Assembly: GCA_020432595.1 (NCBI GenBank)
Contig: JAGQGA010000370.1
Span: forward strand, 1-5,857
DNA from: Anaerolineales bacterium
GTDB taxonomy: Bacteria; Chloroflexota; Anaerolineae; Promineifilales; Promineifilaceae
Direction of reading: 5' to 3'
DNA: 5,857 nucleotides
Position 1 is the first letter of the stretch. Every line of letters begins with the position of its first letter. A program made the position numbers and the translations under genes. Under the pieces are notes generated by a model that had not been told where the DNA came from, did not search any database, and saw only the letters and a list, made by a program, of their open reading frames with translations. Below are positions 3-5,857 of this stretch, in pieces.

Positions 3-2144
3 TGGCAAAACCCCGATCTGGTCAACCAGCGCGTCAACGCCTTTCGCACCACGCTCGATGAGGCACTCGATGGCAACCCCGCTGCCCTCCTTCCCTCCAT
101 CCTTGGCGTGGTCAAAATGTTTACCATCGAAGGCGACCAGGAATGGCGCTACCATGTCGCTGGCGAACCAGTGTTTGATTGGGTGACGGGGTTGTTTTTT
201 TATGGCGGCGTTATGTGGGCGGTTTTTTGCATCTTTACAAGCAGGGGAGCAGGGGAGCAAGGGGGCAGGGGTGAAAACGAACCTACCCTACTCGCCTGCT
301 CCTTTGCCCCCCTGCTCCTTTTCTGGCTGGCTGCCATGCTTGGCCCCAACGCCATTTTGGAAGCCAACTCCTCCTTTTTGCGGGCGGCGGGGGCGATGGT
401 GCCGGTGTATTTGTTAACGGCCGTTTTCCTCGACCACACCCTCACCTACACCACCACCCGCTGGCCGCAAACAACCCGCCTCTGGCCGTTGCTGCTGACT
501 GCTGGCTTTGCCCTCACCCTGCTCAATACCTGGCAGCAATACTTTGTCCGCTGGGCCAACAACCCCGACGTGCGCGAGATCTATCAGGCTGATTTGGCGG
601 CGATGGGGCGTTACCTCAACGAAAACCCACCTCCGCCCAACACCCGCGTCTACATCGGCCACCCCCGTGCCTACGATGCCGCCCCGCGTGATTTTGCCTA
701 CCACACCCGCCGGCCCGTAAGCTGGTTTGTTCCAGCCAATGGGATTGCGTGGAGCGACCAACCCGCTTGGTATTTGCTGCCTGCCGATGAGCCACCCCCA
801 GCGGCACTAACGGAAGTGGCGACGGCAATGCCTATCCCTTATTCCGACGGCGACCCGGCTTTTGTCCGCTATGATACGACCCTGTGGGATGTTGAGCCAG
901 CCGCGCCGCTGCAAGCCACCTTTGCCAACGGGCCAACCCTGGTGGGCTACACGCTGCCGGATGAACTGCTTCGCGGCGATAAGCTAACGGCCGTTTTCCA
1001 CTTCCAAATCCCCGACCCCGCCCCTAACCTGCCCAACAGCCTCACCTACGTCCGCACCCAACTGCTGGACGACAGCGGCAACGTCTGGGCCGAAAGCAGC
1101 GAACTGCTCACCTATCCACAGGCCAATTGGCAGGCGGGGGACAGGTTTGGGCAAACGGCCGTTCTCACCCTGCCCGGCGGAATGCCCCCCGGCCAAGCCC
1201 AGTTCCGCATTGATTTGCACGATGGCGACGGCACGCTCTTTGCCCTGTCTGGTGAAAACCGCACGGCTCTGCTGCCCATCCGCAGCCGCCCCTTGGCTGA
1301 CTTCACCCCACCCACCGATGCCCTCATTTTTGACCAAACCCTGATGCTGCAAAGTGCCACCTTTAGCAGTCTGCTTACCCCTGGCCTCGACATCAACATG
1401 GCACTCAATTGGGTGGCGTTGCAGCGTCCCACCACCGATTACGCTCTCAAGCTCCAACTTGCCGACCCCGACACAGGCGAATCAATTCTTGAGCAAACGT
1501 TCGACATTTGGATCGGCCGCTATCCAACCTCGCGCTGGCAACTACATGAGCCGGTAACCAGCCTGCACCAGTTCCACGTTCCGGCCGATTTGGTGATTGG
1601 GGTGGAGCCGGTGCTGAAGGTGTGGTTGTTGACACCAGAAGCTGGTGTAGGGGAAACGGCCGTTTCCATCACCCAGGGCAACAACATCCTCGCCACCATG
1701 CAGCTTGACCAACGCCAGCGGCTCTACACCCCTCCACCCATCTCCCATCCCCTTACCGCCCAATTTGGCGATGCCATCCAACTGCTCGGCTACGACCTGC
1801 AAACCGATTCCGAAGCCCTACATCTCACGCTTTACTGGCAAGCCCTAGCAACCCCCGCCACCAACTACACCGTTTTCAACCATTTGGTAGACAGCAACGG
1901 CCAAATCATTGCCCAGCTAGACAGCCCCCCCAGCGGCGAGGGTTGGCTTACGGCTACCTGGCTACCGGGCGAAATCGTTGTTGACCAGCGCACCATTCCG
2001 CTAAATGGGGTGTCGGCCGGCGACTACACCCTGCTGCTGGGTCTTTACAGTTCCAGCGGTGGCGAACGGCTGCCAGTGAAAGCCGAGGGGCAACCTCAGC
2101 CTGATAACCAACTGCGCCTGGTTCAAGAGGTGCTCTCTCCATAG
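3..2144 (+). CDS. GT39-type membrane glycosyltransferase, C-terminal part (5' partial)
   Basis: The frame is open to the left edge, giving 713 codons from the first complete one. A GTG at 108 is only an internal codon, because family-like sequence (NQRVNAFRTTLDEAL) precedes it. The stretch GVVKMFTIEGDQEWRYHVAG, followed by a hydrophobic segment, resembles the middle of ArnT/PMT-like GT39 proteins, which move sugars from polyprenyl-phosphate donors to acceptors on the outer membrane face. The catalytic acidic loop would lie upstream and is not visible. Membrane segments are seen at about residues 60-78, 96-115, 129-143 and 160-180 (numbered from base 3). About 530 residues without membrane segments follow, probably extracytoplasmic, in three beta-rich modules near residues 305-425, 437-550 and 579-710. 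The loop between the first two visible segments is encoded by a G-rich tandem repeat. Four AACGGCCGTT palindromes lie inside the gene. The membrane enzyme class is fairly secure; the donor and acceptor are unknown. Confidence 0.72.
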   Translation, partial: WQNPDLVNQRVNAFRTTLDEALDGNPAALLPSILGVVKMFTIEGDQEWRYHVAGEPVFDWVTGLFFYGGVMWAVFCIFTSRGAGEQGGRGENEPTLLACSFAPLLLFWLAAMLGPNAILEANSSFLRAAGAMVPVYLLTAVFLDHTLTYTTTRWPQTTRLWPLLLTAGFALTLLNTWQQYFVRWANNPDVREIYQADLAAMGRYLNENPPPPNTRVYIGHPRAYDAAPRDFAYHTRRPVSWFVPANGIAWSDQPAWYLLPADEPPPAALTEVATAMPIPYSDGDPAFVRYDTTLWDVEPAAPLQATFANGPTLVGYTLPDELLRGDKLTAVFHFQIPDPAPNLPNSLTYVRTQLLDDSGNVWAESSELLTYPQANWQAGDRFGQTAVLTLPGGMPPGQAQFRIDLHDGDGTLFALSGENRTALLPIRSRPLADFTPPTDALIFDQTLMLQSATFSSLLTPGLDINMALNWVALQRPTTDYALKLQLADPDTGESILEQTFDIWIGRYPTSRWQLHEPVTSLHQFHVPADLVIGVEPVLKVWLLTPEAGVGETAVSITQGNNILATMQLDQRQRLYTPPPISHPLTAQFGDAIQLLGYDLQTDSEALHLTLYWQALATPATNYTVFNHLVDSNGQIIAQLDSPPSGEGWLTATWLPGEIVVDQRTIPLNGVSAGDYTLLLGLYSSSGGERLPVKAEGQPQPDNQLRLVQEVLSP
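240..271 (+). repeat. Four-unit AGCAGGGG tandem repeat with G-quadruplex pattern
   Basis: Four adjacent 8-bp units are present: AGCAGGGG, AGCAGGGG, AGCAAGGG and GGCAGGGG. The G tracts at 244-247, 252-255, 261-265 and 268-271 are separated by loops of 4, 5 and 2 bases, which fits a canonical four-tract G-quadruplex pattern on the coding strand. The repeat is in frame with the GT39 gene and encodes a Gly/Glu/Arg-rich polar loop (RGAGEQGGRGENEP) between two membrane segments. From memory, similar octamer-like repeats are scattered through some cyanobacterial and Chloroflexota genomes; I could not check this. Confidence 0.85.
254..318. repeat. Imperfect inverted repeat (G-rich/C-rich arms)
   Basis: The G-rich arm 254-273 pairs with the C-rich arm 299-318: 16 of 20 positions are Watson-Crick and two more are G-U in RNA. 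The intervening segment is 25 bases. The left arm overlaps the octamer tandem repeat. The right arm (CTGCTCC then TTGCCCCCCTGCTCC) looks like a degenerate copy of the same repeat in the opposite orientation. The pair spans the loop and the start of the second visible membrane segment of the GT39 protein. Confidence 0.7.
416..425. repeat. AACGGCCGTT palindrome, copy 1
   Basis: This is a perfect 10-bp palindrome inside the GT39 gene. It is read ACG GCC GTT and contributes Thr-Ala-Val within the third visible membrane segment (YLLTAVFLD). Confidence 0.9.
986..995. repeat. AACGGCCGTT palindrome, copy 2
   Basis: A perfect copy in the first beta-rich module of the GT39 protein, read as Thr-Ala-Val in DKLTAVFHF. 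It shares the 14-base context TAACGGCCGTTTTC with copy 1. Confidence 0.9.
1154..1163. repeat. AACGGCCGTT palindrome, copy 3
   Basis: A perfect copy in the first beta-rich module, read as Thr-Ala-Val in GQTAVLTL. Confidence 0.9.
1652..1667. repeat. AACGGCCGTT palindrome, copy 4, extended to 16 bp
   Basis: The core at 1655-1664 is extended to the perfect 16-bp palindrome GGAAACGGCCGTTTCC. It is read as Thr-Ala-Val in GETAVSIT, near the junction between the second and third beta-rich modules. Confidence 0.9.
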
Positions 2145-2170
2145 CCAGGAAAAAGGGCTTGGGGTTGAAA

Positions 2171-2201
2171 GGGAAACGGCCGTTTCCCAGACGGCCGTTT
2201 C
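2171..2201 (+). repeat. Intergenic tandem pair of the palindrome; hairpin
   Basis: The first copy is the perfect 18-bp palindrome GGGAAACGGCCGTTTCCC (2171-2188). A second, nine-of-ten copy is at 2191-2199. In RNA, 2173-2183 can pair with 2191-2201 over 11 perfect base pairs around a 7-base loop (TTCCCAG). It begins 26 bases after the GT39 stop, so it may end or protect that transcript. No T run follows, so it is not a classical intrinsic terminator. Confidence 0.75.
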
Positions 2202-2270
2202 ACCACAAGTCAGTGGTAAATTTCACACCAAAGCGGGATGAGGTTGGAAGGGGAATGGGCATCATAAATA

Positions 2271-2507
2271 GTGACCCTTATCAGAATGTTTTTTGACGAC
2301 CATAATCCTTCCCACATTCATGTTGAATATTCGGGGAAGAAGGCAAATTTTGATTTTAATGGGAATGTAACCAAGGGCGATTTGAATTCGAGAACCGCAA
2401 CTAAACTTGTCCGTGAATGGATTGACCTGCATGTTCTTGAACTCGAAGAATGTTGGAAACTGGCGCAGGAAAGCAAACCGATTGGGAAAATCCCTCCTTT
2501 AACGTGA
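2271..2507 (+). CDS. DUF4160 family small protein
   Basis: This 78-residue protein matches the DUF4160 pattern: an aromatic strand followed by DDHNPSHIHVEY, a strand-rich middle, then VREWIDLHVLELEECW with the conserved Trp pairs, and an IGKIPPL tail. The family is small and widespread, and its function is not established. GTG 2271 is the first start after an in-frame TAA at 2265-2267; ATG 2286 is the alternative. The nearest Shine-Dalgarno-like run (GGAAGGGG, 2246-2253) is 17 bases before the GTG, which is too far to be ideal. Family members as I recall them start with several extra residues of the MPxIxxFxGI type. These are missing here, so the 5' end may be damaged. The gene is AT-rich (about 40% GC in sampled lines) next to a GC-rich neighbour. 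A DUF2442 remnant follows after 10 bases. Confidence 0.75.
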   Translation: MTLIRMFFDDHNPSHIHVEYSGKKANFDFNGNVTKGDLNSRTATKLVREWIDLHVLELEECWKLAQESKPIGKIPPLT

Positions 2508-2510
2508 GGT
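2505..2510 (+). promoter_or_regulatory. Shine-Dalgarno-like site for the DUF2442 remnant
   Basis: TGAGGT overlaps the DUF4160 stop codon and lies 7 bases before ATG 2518. It is evidence that ATG 2518 was once the translated start of the second gene of the pair. Confidence 0.5.
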
Positions 2511-2517
2511 TAAAATC

Positions 2518-2615
2518 ATGTCGAACATGAACGATATTATAAAGCTAATAATACCTTCCATATCCTATTTGATGATGGCGTGGCTGGGGATGTTGATCTA
2601 ACGGAATTTACATAG
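2518..2615 (+). pseudogene. DUF2442 remnant, frameshifted and truncated
   Basis: ATG 2518 opens with MSNMNDIIK in one frame, which then runs out as a 27-codon ORF without family resemblance. In another frame (2544-2612) the sequence reads ANNTFHILFDDGVAGDVDLT and then EFT. It matches the DUF2442 core of a strand followed by F-D-D-G-V, G, V-D-L. Restoring one lost base near 2538-2546 joins the two parts into a plausible family N-terminus. TAG 2613-2615 and TAA 2619-2621 then stop it at about 33 residues, against roughly 80 in family members. The downstream frames do not show the expected C-terminal half. DUF2442 genes commonly sit directly after DUF4160 genes, which supports the assignment. 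An assembly error could explain the frameshift but not easily the missing second half. Confidence 0.6.
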
Positions 2616-2832
2616 ACCTAAATCGGTTCCTTTCGGCAGTGGGGCAACCATTTGCTCGATTGCTTGTTGCATTTGATAATTGTGCTTCTAGGTATGTTGG
2701 GACTGATTATTTCCACACACCAGGTTCTCTTAACAATTGTAATGGTGAATTTAACTGACTTCAGTACAATAGTAACTGGCTTTGTATATGCCAAACTAGG
2801 CTCTGCAAGACAAAGGGCAGGGGCAACGGTTA
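2616..2832. other. AT-rich region without a convincing gene; kinase leader
   Basis: About 217 bases at roughly 35-43% GC in sampled lines separate the DUF2442 remnant from the kinase gene. Open frames here are short, overlap the kinase, and match no family I know. A weak -10-like TACAAT is at 2765-2770, but the hexamer 16 bases upstream (TGGTGA) is a poor -35, so no promoter is asserted. The kinase promoter would be expected in this stretch. Confidence 0.5.
2819..2823 (+). promoter_or_regulatory. Shine-Dalgarno site of the hybrid kinase
   Basis: AGGGG ends 9 bases before ATG 2833, the first usual start codon after the in-frame TAG at 2797-2799. It supports the chosen start. Confidence 0.55.
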
Positions 2833-5076
2833 ATGAGCAGCATAAATCAGCAAGAATCAACAACACAAGAGCTACCAGAACGTCTTTCCTGTCTCCAGGC
2901 TGAATTGGAGCAGGCTCGTGCTCGGCTGACCAAGGTGCAGGAACGGTATGAATTGGCAAGCCAGGCGGGGCGTACTGGGGCATGGGATGCAGATTTGCGG
3001 ACGGGAACACTGTATATTGACCCGCTTTTGCGTCAGTCGCGCAATATTCCGCATGGGCAAACACCCACGTTAACGGCGTTTTTAACGGCCGTTCATCCCG
3101 CCGACCTTCTCGTAGTTAGCCAGGCCGTTTCCGCCTTTCTCCGTGGAACCACAAGCGACTACCAGATTGAACACCGCAATCTTTTGGACGATGGTTCCGT
3201 CCGCTGGGTGGCCGTTCACGCCATCGCCCTGCGCGACAAAGACGGTTTTCCCTACCGTCTCGTAGGCACCGAAACCGACATTACTGACAAGCGCAACGCT
3301 GAACTAGCGTTACAAATAGCCAAAAGCGAACTGGAGCAGCGGGTTGAACAGCGAACGGCCGATTTGGAGCAGATCAACAACGCGCTGAAAAAAGAGATCG
3401 GCCGGCACGAGCAAGCCCGCGACAATCTGCGTCAAAGCGAAGACAGTCTGCGCCGCTTATATCTCATCACCATTGACCGTACCACCAGCTACGCAGAAAA
3501 AGTTGAACGGCTGCTGGCCCTAGGCTGCGATCTTCTGCAAATGGAAACCGGGATGCTCTCCCGCGTGACGAACAACGATTACGAACTCCTCCACGTGCGT
3601 TCGCCTTCTCCCATGAAACCCGGCATGGTCTTGCCGCTGGACATGACCTACTGCGAACTACTGCTCACCATTCCGCCTGACCAATGGCCGCTTACATTTG
3701 TCAACATTGGTCAGTCAGAGCAAGCGTATCACCCTGCCTATCAAAATTTCCGGCTGGAAGCCTATATTGGCTTGCCCATCATCGTTCGCGGCCGTCCTTA
3801 TGGCACGCTCAATTTTTCCTCCGCCTCGGTACGCAACGAGCCATTCACCAGCACCCAGAAAGGCATGATTCAATTAATGGGGCAGTGGCTCACAACCGAA
3901 CTGGAGCGGCAGCAGTTAGAAGCCGAGTTCCGCCAATCGCAAAAAATGGAGGCCATTGGGCAGCTTACCAGCGGTGTCGCCCACGATCTCAACAATTTGC
4001 TCACTATCATTACCGGCTACAGCGACCTGCTAACCGAACCAGAGTTGGGGCTAAGCGGTAGCCCGCTCCGCTATGCCCGCGCCATTCGGGATGCCGGGCA
4101 TCAGGTGAGCGAATTGACTAACCAGTTACTCATCTTTAGCCGGGCACAAGAGCAGGAACTGCAAATTTTGCAGTTGAATGAGATCATTATCAAAACCAAG
4201 AGCATGATTGAGCGGTTAATTGGCGAGAACATCATTGTCGCCACCGAACTGGCACCCAATTTGGGCAACATCAAGGCTGATCCGGTGCAAATTAACCAGA
4301 TACTTGTGAATTTAGCCGTTAATGCCCGTGATGCCATGCCCAGTGGGGGGCAACTACTCATCGCCACCAGCATGGTTACAACAGATAATGACGCAACCAT
4401 CATTGATACAGCTTTATTAAGCCCCGGTCAATATGTTTTGCTCACGGTGAGCGATACGGGTGTGGGCATGGCACCAGAAACGCAAGCTAAAGCGTTTGAG
4501 CCGTTTTTTACAACAAAGGAAAAGGGCAAGGGCACAGGGTTAGGTCTTTCCACCGTCTATAGCATTGTGATGCAAACGGGCGGCAAGGTGTATTTGGAAA
4601 GCGAACCTGGGTCTGGGACAACTTTTCAGATTTATTTCCCCACGATGGCAAGCTATGAAGTGGTGGAAAAACAGGAAGAGATTGTTGAAGGTTTGCCGCC
4701 GATGGCAGTGGGGCATGAAGTGGTGCTGCTGGTTGAAGACCGGGAAAGCGTGCGCGAATTCGTGCAGGAGGTGCTGCTGGATGCTGGTTACACAGTTCTG
4801 GTGGCTGAAGATGGGATGCAGGCGGTTTCACTGTTCAATGATTATGCTGAACCGATTGATTTGCTGCTGACGGATGTGATTATGCCGGGGATGAATGGGG
4901 CGGAACTGGCTTCGTTCTTGCTGGATTTGTCGGCAGGGTTGAAGGTGCTGTATATGTCGGGCTATACGGATGCGATTTCATTGCAAACGGCGCATCCGGG
5001 GCAGAAACATTTCTTGCATAAGCCGTTTATGCCGCATGATTTGCTGTGGTCGGTGCGTCAGGCGTTGGATGATTAG
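2833..5076 (+). CDS. Soluble hybrid sensor histidine kinase (PAS-GAF-HisKA-HATPase-REC)
   Basis: This 747-residue protein has no membrane segment, so it probably senses an intracellular cue. Order: short coiled coil (about 15-38); PAS of the PAS_3 type (39-152, ending [16 protein letters not shown]); coiled coil (155-210); GAF-like domain (about 213-360); HisKA with H-box [10 protein letters not shown] and phosphoacceptor His384; HATPase (about 480-603) with N-box Asn497, G1 box DTGVGM at Asp541, [18 protein letters not shown], and G2 around Gly567-Leu572; receiver (629-745) with acidic pair Glu635-Asp636, phosphoacceptor Asp681 ([13 protein letters not shown]), Ser709 and Lys730. All residues needed for autophosphorylation and transfer to the receiver are present. 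The AHDxNN H-box with a C-terminal receiver recalls CckA-like hybrid kinases that feed a phosphotransfer protein. No such protein or output regulator is adjacent, so the kinase is an orphan in this window. The ligands of PAS and GAF cannot be read from the sequence. Confidence 0.95.
3084..3093. repeat. AACGGCCGTT palindrome, kinase copy
   Basis: A perfect copy in the PAS-coding part of the kinase, read as Thr-Ala-Val in [10 protein letters not shown] degenerate AACGGCGTT lies just upstream at 3072-3080, and an eight-of-ten version (AACGGCCGAT) is at 3354-3363. Confidence 0.9.
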
Positions 5077-5104
5077 GCCGCGTTTGTCTGAGTTTTTTAG
5101 GTAT

Positions 5105-5134
5105 GGGGTCAGCTTGGGTAGCTGGCCTTTTTTT
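5105..5134 (+). terminator. Intrinsic terminator of the hybrid kinase gene
   Basis: GGTCAGCT (5107-5114) pairs with AGCTGGCC (5120-5127): eight base pairs including one G-U, around a TGGGT loop, followed directly by seven T residues (5128-5134). It starts about 30 bases after the kinase stop codon and is a textbook Rho-independent structure on the + strand. Confidence 0.85.
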
Positions 5135-5150
5135 GTGCGGGTGATGGCAG

Positions 5151-5857
5151 ATGAGGGAAAAAACGGCCGTTTCTGCCTGGGGTTGGTTGCTCATTGCGCT
5201 GGTTAGCCATACCCTGTGGGGAACCCACCCGGTTTTTGCTCGCTATCTGCAAACTGTCAGCCACCTGCCCAGCCTCTCCATTTTGGTGTTGGCCTATGGC
5301 CTACCTTTTGTCATTTTTGGCTTTTTTATCTTGCCACGGCTGGATCGCCACGTCTATCGTTCGCCGTTGCTATGGCAGTTTGGTGCTGTTTCAGTTGTGC
5401 GCGGCCTCAGCAACCAGTTTGCTGCACGCTACACCCTGTCGGTGTTTGTCCAAATTGTTACCCAAACGACCCCGTTTTGGGTGGTGCTGCTCAGTGTCTT
5501 GCTGCTGCGTGAGGCCACCCCGCGTTACACCAGGCGAGCCGTAGCACTGACGTTTATCGGCTCGGCCTTGATGATGGGAGAGAGTTTGCTGGCGGGGTGG
5601 CGGCTGGGAACGGTGGGGGGGATAAACGGCCGTTACGATCTCCTAGGCATCTTTCTTGCCATTATCAGCAGCATCGCCCTCGCCGCCTACATGCTCATCG
5701 TCCGCCGCAGCCGCGATGCCCACATTCCCAGCGAAGCCATTATGCTCATGCAATTCTTCGTCATCGCCAGCAGCAGCACCATCCTCTCCATTTTGTGGCA
5801 AGAAGATTGGCGCGGCTGGCTTACCATCGGCCTGTGGGACATTGTTGCCTTTTTGGG
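5151..5857 (+). CDS. EamA/DMT-family transporter (3' partial)
   Basis: The open frame runs off the right edge after 235 complete codons; family members usually have about 280-310 residues and ten membrane helices. The start MREKTAVSAWGWLLIALVSH leads into LWGTHPVFARYL, typical of helix 1 of an EamA domain. Hydrophobic segments follow near residues 40-60, 75-90 (VVRGLSNQFAARYT), 95-118 (FVQIVTQTTPFWVVLLSVLL, then REATP), 128-142, 164-182 and 200-215. The first EamA repeat closes near residue 145 and the second begins near 160. These inner-membrane carriers export or exchange metabolites such as amino acids or nucleotide derivatives; the substrate cannot be inferred. ATG 5151 is the first start after an in-frame TGA at 5142-5144. 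The Shine-Dalgarno is weak. The kinase terminator ends only 16 bases upstream, leaving little room for a separate promoter. Confidence 0.85.
   Translation, partial: MREKTAVSAWGWLLIALVSHTLWGTHPVFARYLQTVSHLPSLSILVLAYGLPFVIFGFFILPRLDRHVYRSPLLWQFGAVSVVRGLSNQFAARYTLSVFVQIVTQTTPFWVVLLSVLLLREATPRYTRRAVALTFIGSALMMGESLLAGWRLGTVGGINGRYDLLGIFLAIISSIALAAYMLIVRRSRDAHIPSEAIMLMQFFVIASSSTILSILWQEDWRGWLTIGLWDIVAFL
5161..5172. repeat. AACGGCCGTT palindrome at the transporter start
   Basis: The 12-bp palindrome AAACGGCCGTTT begins 10 bases after the ATG start and is read as Thr-Ala-Val at residues 5-7. Its position next to the start codon could influence initiation through local folding; that effect is inference. 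Confidence 0.9.
5625..5634. repeat. AACGGCCGTT palindrome, out-of-phase copy
   Basis: A perfect copy in the transporter gene, read AAC GGC CGT T, giving Asn-Gly-Arg in the loop between the two EamA repeats. It is the only coding copy not in the Thr-Ala-Val phase. Confidence 0.9.

What the first reader, a model, noticed from the sequence alone, without database searches (positions are those of the whole stretch)
416..5634. AACGGCCGTT is a highly iterated palindrome in this genome
Eight perfect copies (416, 986, 1154, 1655, 2175, 3084, 5162 and 5625) plus a nine-of-ten copy at 2191 occur in 5857 bases. A random sequence would hold about 0.006 copies (5857 divided by 4 to the tenth). They cross unrelated genes and a spacer, so protein homology cannot explain them. 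This behaves like the cyanobacterial HIP1 octamer, whose abundance is thought to reflect selection linked to methylation, repair or chromosome organisation. Flanks often extend the symmetry (GAAACGGCCGTTTC), suggesting a longer preferred consensus.
Basis: partly seen in the sequence, partly recalled or inferred. Interest (0 to 1): 0.75.

Follow-up and report, generated by a model that had tools for sequence, protein, structure and literature searches.

The report
Genome-wide palindrome mark in Chloroflexota bacteria
A short palindromic DNA word is scattered thousands of times through the genomes of one group of uncultured Chloroflexota bacteria and also through phages, and it is rarely lost over evolution, so it looks like a real DNA mark similar to, but separate from, the well-known HIP1 word of cyanobacteria.

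Summary
Confirmed: the window has 8 perfect AACGGCCGTT plus 2 one-off copies; 0 of 200 shuffles reach that. The window's own genome is not held, but relatives in an order of Anaerolineae (Chloroflexota) carry the word genome-wide: up to 5,060 decamers in 6.2 Mb against 7 of the reversed word. The conserved unit is the octamer ACGGCCGT: 29 of 56 genomes of the order hold 2,887-15,176 copies. In three pairs of relatives it is kept at 97, 88 and 78% of sites where permuted octamers are kept at 58, 30 and 20%; fourfold-degenerate bases inside it did not change in 235 of 235 cases. Other members use dialects on the same CGGCCG core. Four hallmark-confirmed tailed phages carry it at 1.7-3.5 per kb. 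Abundance and turnover fit one selection-like pressure of about 4 per site. None of three methyltransferase families, Vsr or MutH tracks it, so the methylation reading is unsupported, though not excluded in incomplete MAGs. Known in kind (HIP); new in lineage, core, dialects and phage content as far as my searches show. The reader protein is unknown.

The parts
416..425 (.). AACGGCCGTT; octamer ACGGCCGT at 417-424, inside ORF 3-2144 (codons T-A-V); same octamer at this codon position in 5 of 9 orthologues
986..995 (.). AACGGCCGTT (octamer 987-994), inside ORF 3-2144; in none of 9 orthologues at this position
1154..1163 (.). AACGGCCGTT (octamer 1155-1162), inside ORF 3-2144; in none of 9 orthologues at this position
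1655..1664 (.). AACGGCCGTT (octamer 1656-1663), inside ORF 3-2144; in none of 9 orthologues at this position
2175..2184 (.). AACGGCCGTT (octamer 2176-2183) in the spacer after ORF 3-2144
2190..2199 (.). GACGGCCGTT: one-off decamer but perfect octamer at 2191-2198, starting 15 bp after the previous site
3084..3093 (.). AACGGCCGTT (octamer 3085-3092), inside the histidine kinase gene
3354..3363 (.). AACGGCCGAT: variant with one outer octamer base changed, not a full octamer
5162..5171 (.). AACGGCCGTT (octamer 5163-5170), at codons 4-7 of the EamA gene
5625..5634 (.). AACGGCCGTT (octamer 5626-5633), inside the EamA gene in another reading frame (N-G-R)
3..2144 (+). ORF, open at its 5' end, 713 aa, no Pfam family; full-length orthologues of 42-51% identity in 9 genomes of the order (only that order was searched)
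2833..5076 (+). hybrid sensor histidine kinase (PAS, GAF, HisKA, HATPase, response regulator), 747 aa
5151..5857 (+). EamA-type transporter gene, runs off the window

Best explanation
AACGGCCGTT in the window is the local dialect of a genome-wide HIP-type mark whose conserved unit is the palindromic octamer ACGGCCGT. Shown in relatives: it is genome-wide, kept at the DNA level in all reading frames and in spacers, kept about equally whether or not another copy lies near, present in phages, and symmetric, with lineage dialects that change the flanking base on both sides around a constant CGGCCG core. Inferred: a twofold-symmetric (dimeric) double-strand DNA reader recognises it. This does not require a recognisable CGGCCG methyltransferase.
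For: Counts: 29 of 56 genomes of the order hold 2,887-15,176 octamers; decamer 5,060 against 7 for the reversed word in G006. Conservation: 492 of 509, 128 of 145 and 88 of 113 octamer observations identical in pairs of 92, 82.5 and 78% identity, against 58, 30 and 20% for permuted octamers and 54, 19 and 16% for other palindromes; sharp edges; fourfold third bases, in codons whose first two bases are unchanged, 117 of 117 and 118 of 118 unchanged inside, 450 of 582 and 1,663 of 1,852 outside. Site autonomy: conservation 0.88-0.95 over five bins of nearest-neighbour distance without trend; spacing near-Poisson. Turnover: 24 single-step changes against 292 expected if losses were neutral and 4.7 if gains were neutral; S = 4.12 from abundance predicts 19.8. 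Symmetry: with A on both sides the core is kept in 97%, with one A in 78-88%, with none in 55-72%, apart from 5 of 5 T/T sites. Dialects. Phages.
Against: No reader protein was found. Biased repair and ordinary selection predict the same abundance-turnover relation, so cannot separate them; it rests on 24 events in five genome pairs, two of which share G003. Strength may not be uniform: in the three more distant pairs sites in frame 0 are kept in 62 of 81 and those in frames 1 and 2 in 64 of 71 (summed). In the G dialect and in the bare-core genomes the word is much rarer in spacers than in genes (1 in 9.4 kb; 1.02 against 4.43 per kb). A repair system that corrects every position of an octamer is not known to me. 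The two repair nucleases tested do not track the word: Vsr 8 of 56, MutH 0 of 56.
Confidence: 0.42

Rival explanations
1. Fitness-selected binding: a dimeric nucleoid-associated or self-marking protein binds the thousands of octamers of a genome, and cells or phages with bound or marked DNA do better, for example because unmarked DNA is silenced or degraded.
For: Four hallmark-confirmed tailed phages carry 1.71 (L128), 1.82 (L138), 2.16 (L145) and 3.52 (L374) octamers per kb, with copies inside terminase, portal, protease and tape measure genes, and one tailed-phage contig carries the T dialect (L405, 11 against 0.7 expected). Dyad symmetry and graded half-site effect. S of about 4 per site.
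Against: Thousands of sites under similar selection is a heavy load, and a change of dialect would then be costly; conservation shows no dependence on neighbours. Phage contigs were picked by close pairs or triples of sites, so their densities are biased upward, and other octamer-rich viral loci have only 0.7-1.2 per kb.
Confidence: 0.28
2. Methylation-linked HIP as in cyanobacteria: an orphan methyltransferase for GGCC or CGGCCG modifies the octamers and a methylation-directed repair system creates and keeps them.
For: GGCC is the core, and alpha-class GGm4CC methyltransferases exist (PMC3425538, PMC6560206, passages read). One-off variants are in clear excess at the outer position, as Elhai reports for HIP1 (PMC4390886, section 2.6 read).
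Against: No PF00145 match in 14 of the 29 octamer-rich genomes. G003, G002, G015 and G370 have no PF00145 match and only weak PF01555 matches (best E 4.3e-8 to 5e-4). PF02086 is missing from octamer-rich G007 and G019, and octamer-poor G371 and G327 have proteins of the same group and nearly the same loop as bearers. No clear C-to-T one-off excess. In ACGGCCGT a methylatable GC is already in the core, so the GmeC model gives no reason for an octamer (my inference). Caveat: MAG completeness is not given, other families were not searched, specificity was not measured.
Confidence: 0.15
3. DNA uptake drive: the octamer is a palindromic DNA uptake sequence kept by preferential uptake and recombination, with dialects as in Neisseriaceae.
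For: Constant core with lineage dialects and a density of about one per 500-1,000 bp resemble DUS (PMC3630211, abstract and passages; PMC7371117, passages).
Against: Dyad symmetry points to double-strand recognition by a dimer, whereas the 10-mer DUS printed in PMC3630211 is not a palindrome; some phages are octamer-rich, whereas DUS density falls in neisserial islands (PMC7371117, passage), although that paper also says that uptake sequences accumulate in Pasteurellaceae prophages. Competence genes were not examined.
Confidence: 0.1
4. No special process: chance, base composition, codon usage, a mobile repeat or plain mutational bias.
For: A local GC-rich composition and T-A-V codons could raise the word somewhat.
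Against: O/E 32-109 for the decamer and 21-28 for the octamer in the octamer-rich samples; all three frames and spacers; flank identity at baseline in G009/G018; losses suppressed 12-fold (24 against 292, P = 4e-92) and gains raised 5-fold (24 against 4.7, P = 3e-10), so neither creation alone nor protection alone fits.
Confidence: 0.01

Closest known systems
HIP1 (GCGATCGC) and alternate HIPs of cyanobacteria (Elhai 2015, PMC4390886)
   Same: Palindromic GC-rich word, hundreds to thousands of copies per Mb, O/E in the tens to hundreds, deviations commonest at the outer bases, alternate words replacing it in some lineages.
   Different: Another phylum; core CGGCCG instead of CGATCG; dialects keep the core and change the flanking bases symmetrically; no methyltransferase found that tracks it; present in phages. 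Elhai's main text has no mention of Chloroflexi, CGGCCG or phage.
DNA uptake sequence dialects of Neisseriaceae (PMC3630211)
   Same: Thousands of copies, constant core (CTG) with lineage dialects that follow phylogeny.
   Different: DUS is not a palindrome and is read by ComP, a minor pilin; no competence link was examined here, and some phages are octamer-rich.
GGCC alpha-class N4-cytosine methyltransferases M.CbeI, DmtB, M.Ssp6803II (PMC3425538, PMC6560206)
   Same: Their site GGCC is the centre of the octamer; [quoted passage not shown]
   Different: No member could be shown here; the two D12 proteins tested fit the Dam family, and the one compared with solved structures fits DpnM best. 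Their own sequences were not at hand for a direct comparison.

Membership tests
Highly iterated palindrome (HIP), general class | Palindromic word genome-wide far above Markov expectation | tested here: met
   (in relatives; the window's own genome is not held)
Highly iterated palindrome (HIP), general class | Not a mobile repeat: spread in genes of all frames and in spacers, without conserved flanks | tested here: met
Highly iterated palindrome (HIP), general class | Kept at DNA level between relatives | tested here: met
HIP1 of cyanobacteria (specific) | Sequence GCGATCGC, host a cyanobacterium | tested here: not met
   Sequence differs; octamer-rich genomes that carry a title are Anaerolineae/Chloroflexota MAGs
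Methyltransferase-linked HIP | Matching orphan methyltransferase present with the word and absent without it | tested here: not met
   PF00145, PF01555 and PF02086 over 56 genomes; other families not searched and MAG completeness unknown
Methyltransferase-linked HIP | Base modification at the word | not testable with these tools
   needs long-read kinetics
DNA uptake sequence | Bias of DNA uptake and dependence on a pilin receptor | not testable with these tools
   experimental; competence genes not searched
DNA uptake sequence | Constant core with lineage dialects | tested here: met
DNA uptake sequence | Non-palindromic word | tested here: not met
   The dominant words found are palindromes

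The most novel reading that the evidence does not exclude
The octamer is a DNA self-mark: a dimeric reader in this order of Chloroflexota treats octamer-bearing DNA as self, hosts and their phages are both held to the local dialect, and dialect change (A, T, G or bare core) separates lineages as recognition systems do.
Probability: 0.18. Interest if true: 0.9.

Novelty: new variant of a known kind. Interest (0 to 1): 0.72.

Why it matters
What HIP1 does is still discussed as open in the papers I saw, which treat it in cyanobacteria and tie it to methyltransferases. An independent HIP with several dialects on one core, in a single order that also has members without the word, gives a natural comparative test: which protein comes, goes and changes specificity with the word. 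It already suggests that a recognisable methyltransferase is not needed, that sites are kept one by one with an average S of about 4, and that phages share the word. No paper describing this word as a HIP was seen; the four papers that print the ten letters are by title about other things and were not read.

Tried and rejected
Decamer as the unit: rejected, conservation stops at the octamer edge. Dyad coupling of the two half-sites at +-5: palindromic pairs occur about as often as the marginals predict in most of the 32 rows, with exceptions both ways (G015 91 against 71, G367 17 against 29, G275 8 against 17). Regular spacing: near-Poisson with a lack of very close pairs, most marked in G119; helical phasing was not tested. 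Placement at gene ends: little trend, 1.41 per kb in the first 60 nt and 2.23 in the last 60 nt. C5 methyltransferase shared by bare-core lineages G175, G380 and G381: G092, without the word, has the 66-70% identical orthologue. Dam-type enzymes: same group in octamer-poor genomes (3 of 17 sequences were missed by my pattern). A second word (TGCCGGCA) outside the order in G258, G286, G345: 3, 0 and 0 copies in the small samples read. T sites of T-dialect genomes aligned to A-dialect genomes: 9 sites only, core kept in 3, too few. Scripts to pull C5 proteins failed on too strict patterns (65 partial). Plasmid search with the kinase gave only relatives under 60% identity.
Full report
1. Observation. 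Ten matches with up to one mismatch against a shuffle mean of 0.23, and none of 200 shuffles reaches ten. Four decamers lie in ORF 3-2144, two sites in the spacer, one full site in a hybrid histidine kinase gene and two in an EamA gene.

2. Genome-wide or local? The window's genome is not held. Whole-genome counts of 25 genomes picked from those hits: up to 5,060 decamers in 6.2 Mb with 7 for the word read backwards; the picked genomes from other phyla held 8-37. In a class-wide sample of 346 genomes 12 hold more than 100 copies, and all 12 are in the order of G006. In that order (56 held genomes) 29 hold 361-5,060 decamers and the same 29 hold 2,887-15,176 octamers ACGGCCGT, against 20-459 for the reversed octamer. 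The tool gives no order name; the genomes that I reached through titled loci are called Anaerolineae, Anaerolineales, Anaerolineaceae, Chloroflexi or Chloroflexota. That the window belongs here is an inference: its first ORF has 9 full-length orthologues of 42-51% identity in the order (best E = 3e-217 in G014), but only that order was searched. At window position 417 the octamer itself sits at the same codons in 5 of those 9 orthologues (a sixth, G372, has a one-off); the other three sites of that ORF are in none, and the orthologues from octamer-poor G327 and G378 hold no octamer.

3. The unit and its dialects. By third-order Markov expectation the octamer is 25 and 21 times and the decamer 76 and 62 times over-represented in G003 and G011, sampled by coordinate; in G015 28 and 32 times. 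In loci picked because they hold a decamer pair the decamer O/E is 109 (biased upward). Decamer share of octamers: 82% in G006 and 84% in G007, 35% in G003, 6% in G015; the window, with 8 of 9, resembles G006 and G007. Other members of the order keep the core and change the outer bases on both sides: TCGGCCGA in G369 and G119, GCGGCCGC in G204; in G015 the commonest decamer is CACGGCCGTG. Bare CGGCCG is about 4-fold enriched in G175 and 2- to 3.6-fold in G302, G380, G381 and G226 without one dominant octamer, G302 leaning to A. A different word, TGCCGGCA, is enriched in G373, where CGGCCG is rare (3,665 TGCCGGCA genome-wide). Several members (for example G371, G092, G311, G139, G245) show no such word in the stretches read. 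Samples under 12 kb (G370, G355, G348, G378, G379, G017, G382, G383) are too small to type and G377 gave no readable bases.

4. Maintenance. In aligned orthologous stretches the octamer was identical in 492 of 509 observations for G009/G018 (92% identity), 128 of 145 for G003/G014 (82.5%), 88 of 113 for G003/G011 (78%), 76 of 88 for G015/G367 (83%), 66 of 72 for G255/G275 (93%) and 34 of 42 for G014/G011 (79%); shared sites are seen from both genomes, so they count twice. Permuted octamers: 58, 30, 20, 28, 62 and 24%. In G009/G018 identity is 0.99 on each octamer base and 0.91 at the very next base, the genome mean being 0.92. At fourfold-degenerate third positions, in codons with the first two bases unchanged, 235 of 235 were unchanged inside octamers; outside, 450 of 582 ACG and 1,663 of 1,852 GCC. 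Conservation does not depend on the distance to the next octamer (0.88-0.95 over five bins). It is high in all frames and in spacers, but in the three distant pairs frame 0 is lower (62 of 81) than frames 1 and 2 together (64 of 71; summed), so it is not perfectly uniform. Densities in five A-type genomes were 1.87 per kb in genes and 1.57 in spacers (which includes some pair-picked loci); O/E in six genomes is 68 in genes and 124 in spacers. In the G dialect (1 site in 9.4 kb of spacer) and in bare-core genomes (1.02 against 4.43 per kb) spacers are poor in the word, which I cannot explain beyond their lower GC.

5. Turnover. Over five genome pairs, two of them sharing G003, 24 single-step exchanges between octamer and one-off words were seen; 292 are expected from the octamer side and 4.7 from the one-off side if these words evolved like permuted controls. 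Creation bias alone and protection alone are both rejected. The abundance ratio of 62 gives S = 4.12, which predicts 19.8 exchanges. This is the behaviour of selection or of a conversion-like drive; the data do not tell them apart.

6. Symmetry. In G009/G018 CGGCCG with A on both sides is kept in 97%, with one A in 78-88%, with none in 55-72%, except the T/T class with 5 of 5; the median of 15 palindromic hexamers is 64%. One-off words are in clear excess only at the outer base: to G 1.9-2.9 and to T 2.8-4.1 times expectation, the bases of the other two dialects; to C 0.5, 1.0 and, in the small third set, 2.2 (8 against 3.6); inner changes lie between 0 and 1.55. The half-sites at +-5 vary nearly independently, with exceptions. 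I infer a symmetric double-strand reader.

7. Phages. Of 73 IMG/VR loci fetched by pattern, 19 (from 15 contigs) have at least 5 octamers and over 4 times expectation, at 0.69-3.72 per kb, and 3 show TCGGCCGA (picked by close pairs or triples, so biased upward). Hallmark genes confirm tailed phages: portal and head protease in L128, terminase, portal and protease in L145, tape measure in L138, terminase, portal and head morphogenesis in L374, with 48 octamers in 13.6 kb, and tape measure in L405, which has 11 TCGGCCGA against 0.7 expected. Between viral contigs 65 of 67 octamer observations were conserved; 34 of the 67 come from pairs of over 95% identity, and the comparisons overlap. None of 43 viral loci matched the host loci in hand at E 1e-20; whole host genomes were not searched.

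8. Methylation and repair genes. PF00145 matched in 26 of 56 genomes and is absent from 14 of the 29 octamer-rich ones. PF01555 matched in 52 of 56, 45 over the cut-off, but G003, G002, G015 and G370 have no PF00145 match and no PF01555 match better than 4.3e-8. PF02086 matched in 45 of 56 and is missing from octamer-rich G007 and G019. Of the two PF02086 proteins tested, L253 (G003) is the more Dam-like and L246 (G002) fits DpnM best among solved structures; the second group includes octamer-poor G371 and G327. That the shared loop means GATC specificity is recalled knowledge, not a test. Vsr occurs in 8 of 56 and MutH in 0 of 56. MAG completeness is not given, so absences are weaker than they look.

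9. Literature. Elhai 2015 (PMC4390886: abstract, sections 2.3 and 2.6, the first of two parts of 3.4, and passages) describes HIP1, alternate HIPs and a GmeC mismatch-repair model; its main text holds no Chloroflexi, CGGCCG or phage. By my inference the model does not explain an octamer around GGCC, because the GC is already in the core. DUS dialects: PMC3630211 and PMC7371117, passages. GGCC methyltransferases: PMC3425538 and PMC6560206, passages. A metaepigenome study of Chloroflexi from Lake Biwa reports GANTC, TTAA and GCWGC (PMC6329791, passages). Xu et al. 2018 on HIP1 selection and periodicity was seen only as a reference title and is not held; a 2011 paper on HIP1 among prokaryotes was seen only as a reference and is not held. 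No paper describing this word as a HIP was seen or 81 (listings); I cannot exclude subscription papers.

10. Verdict. Ordinary causes are excluded. It works like a HIP and meets the general features of one; it is not HIP1, and the methyltransferase link that marks cyanobacterial HIPs was tested with three families and not met. I commit to a dimeric reader with site-by-site, drive-like retention (0.42), with fitness-selected binding or self-marking next (0.28).

Noticed in passing
window 2286-2507: Small gene with a DUF4160 domain (PF13711, E = 3.7e-14) in the stretch that the first-stage finding treats as a spacer.
   Followed up: partly
window 246-318: A GC-rich 24-nt inverted repeat pair (88% complementary, 25 nt apart) inside ORF 3-2144; the encoded stretch aligns with several gaps to the G327 orthologue and may be a small inserted repeat.
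   Followed up: no
G003, G011, G014 (query positions 6713-6778, 16021-16085, 16441-16505 of L152): Short 50-70 bp sequences with many dispersed copies, one of them often matching both strands at one place, in three related genomes: a separate family of dispersed repeats.
   Followed up: no
G373 and G355: TGCCGGCA, with another core, occurs 3,665 times in G373 while ACGGCCGT occurs 14 times; G355 has 886. A possible second HIP in the same order.
   Followed up: partly
L405, L385, L381 (viral contigs): Contigs enriched in TCGGCCGA instead of ACGGCCGT, possibly from phages of T-dialect hosts; L405 has a tape measure gene.
   Followed up: partly
G175, G302, G380, G381, G226: CGGCCG enriched 2- to 4-fold without one dominant octamer, G302 leaning to A: perhaps an ancestral or decayed state of the mark.
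   Followed up: partly
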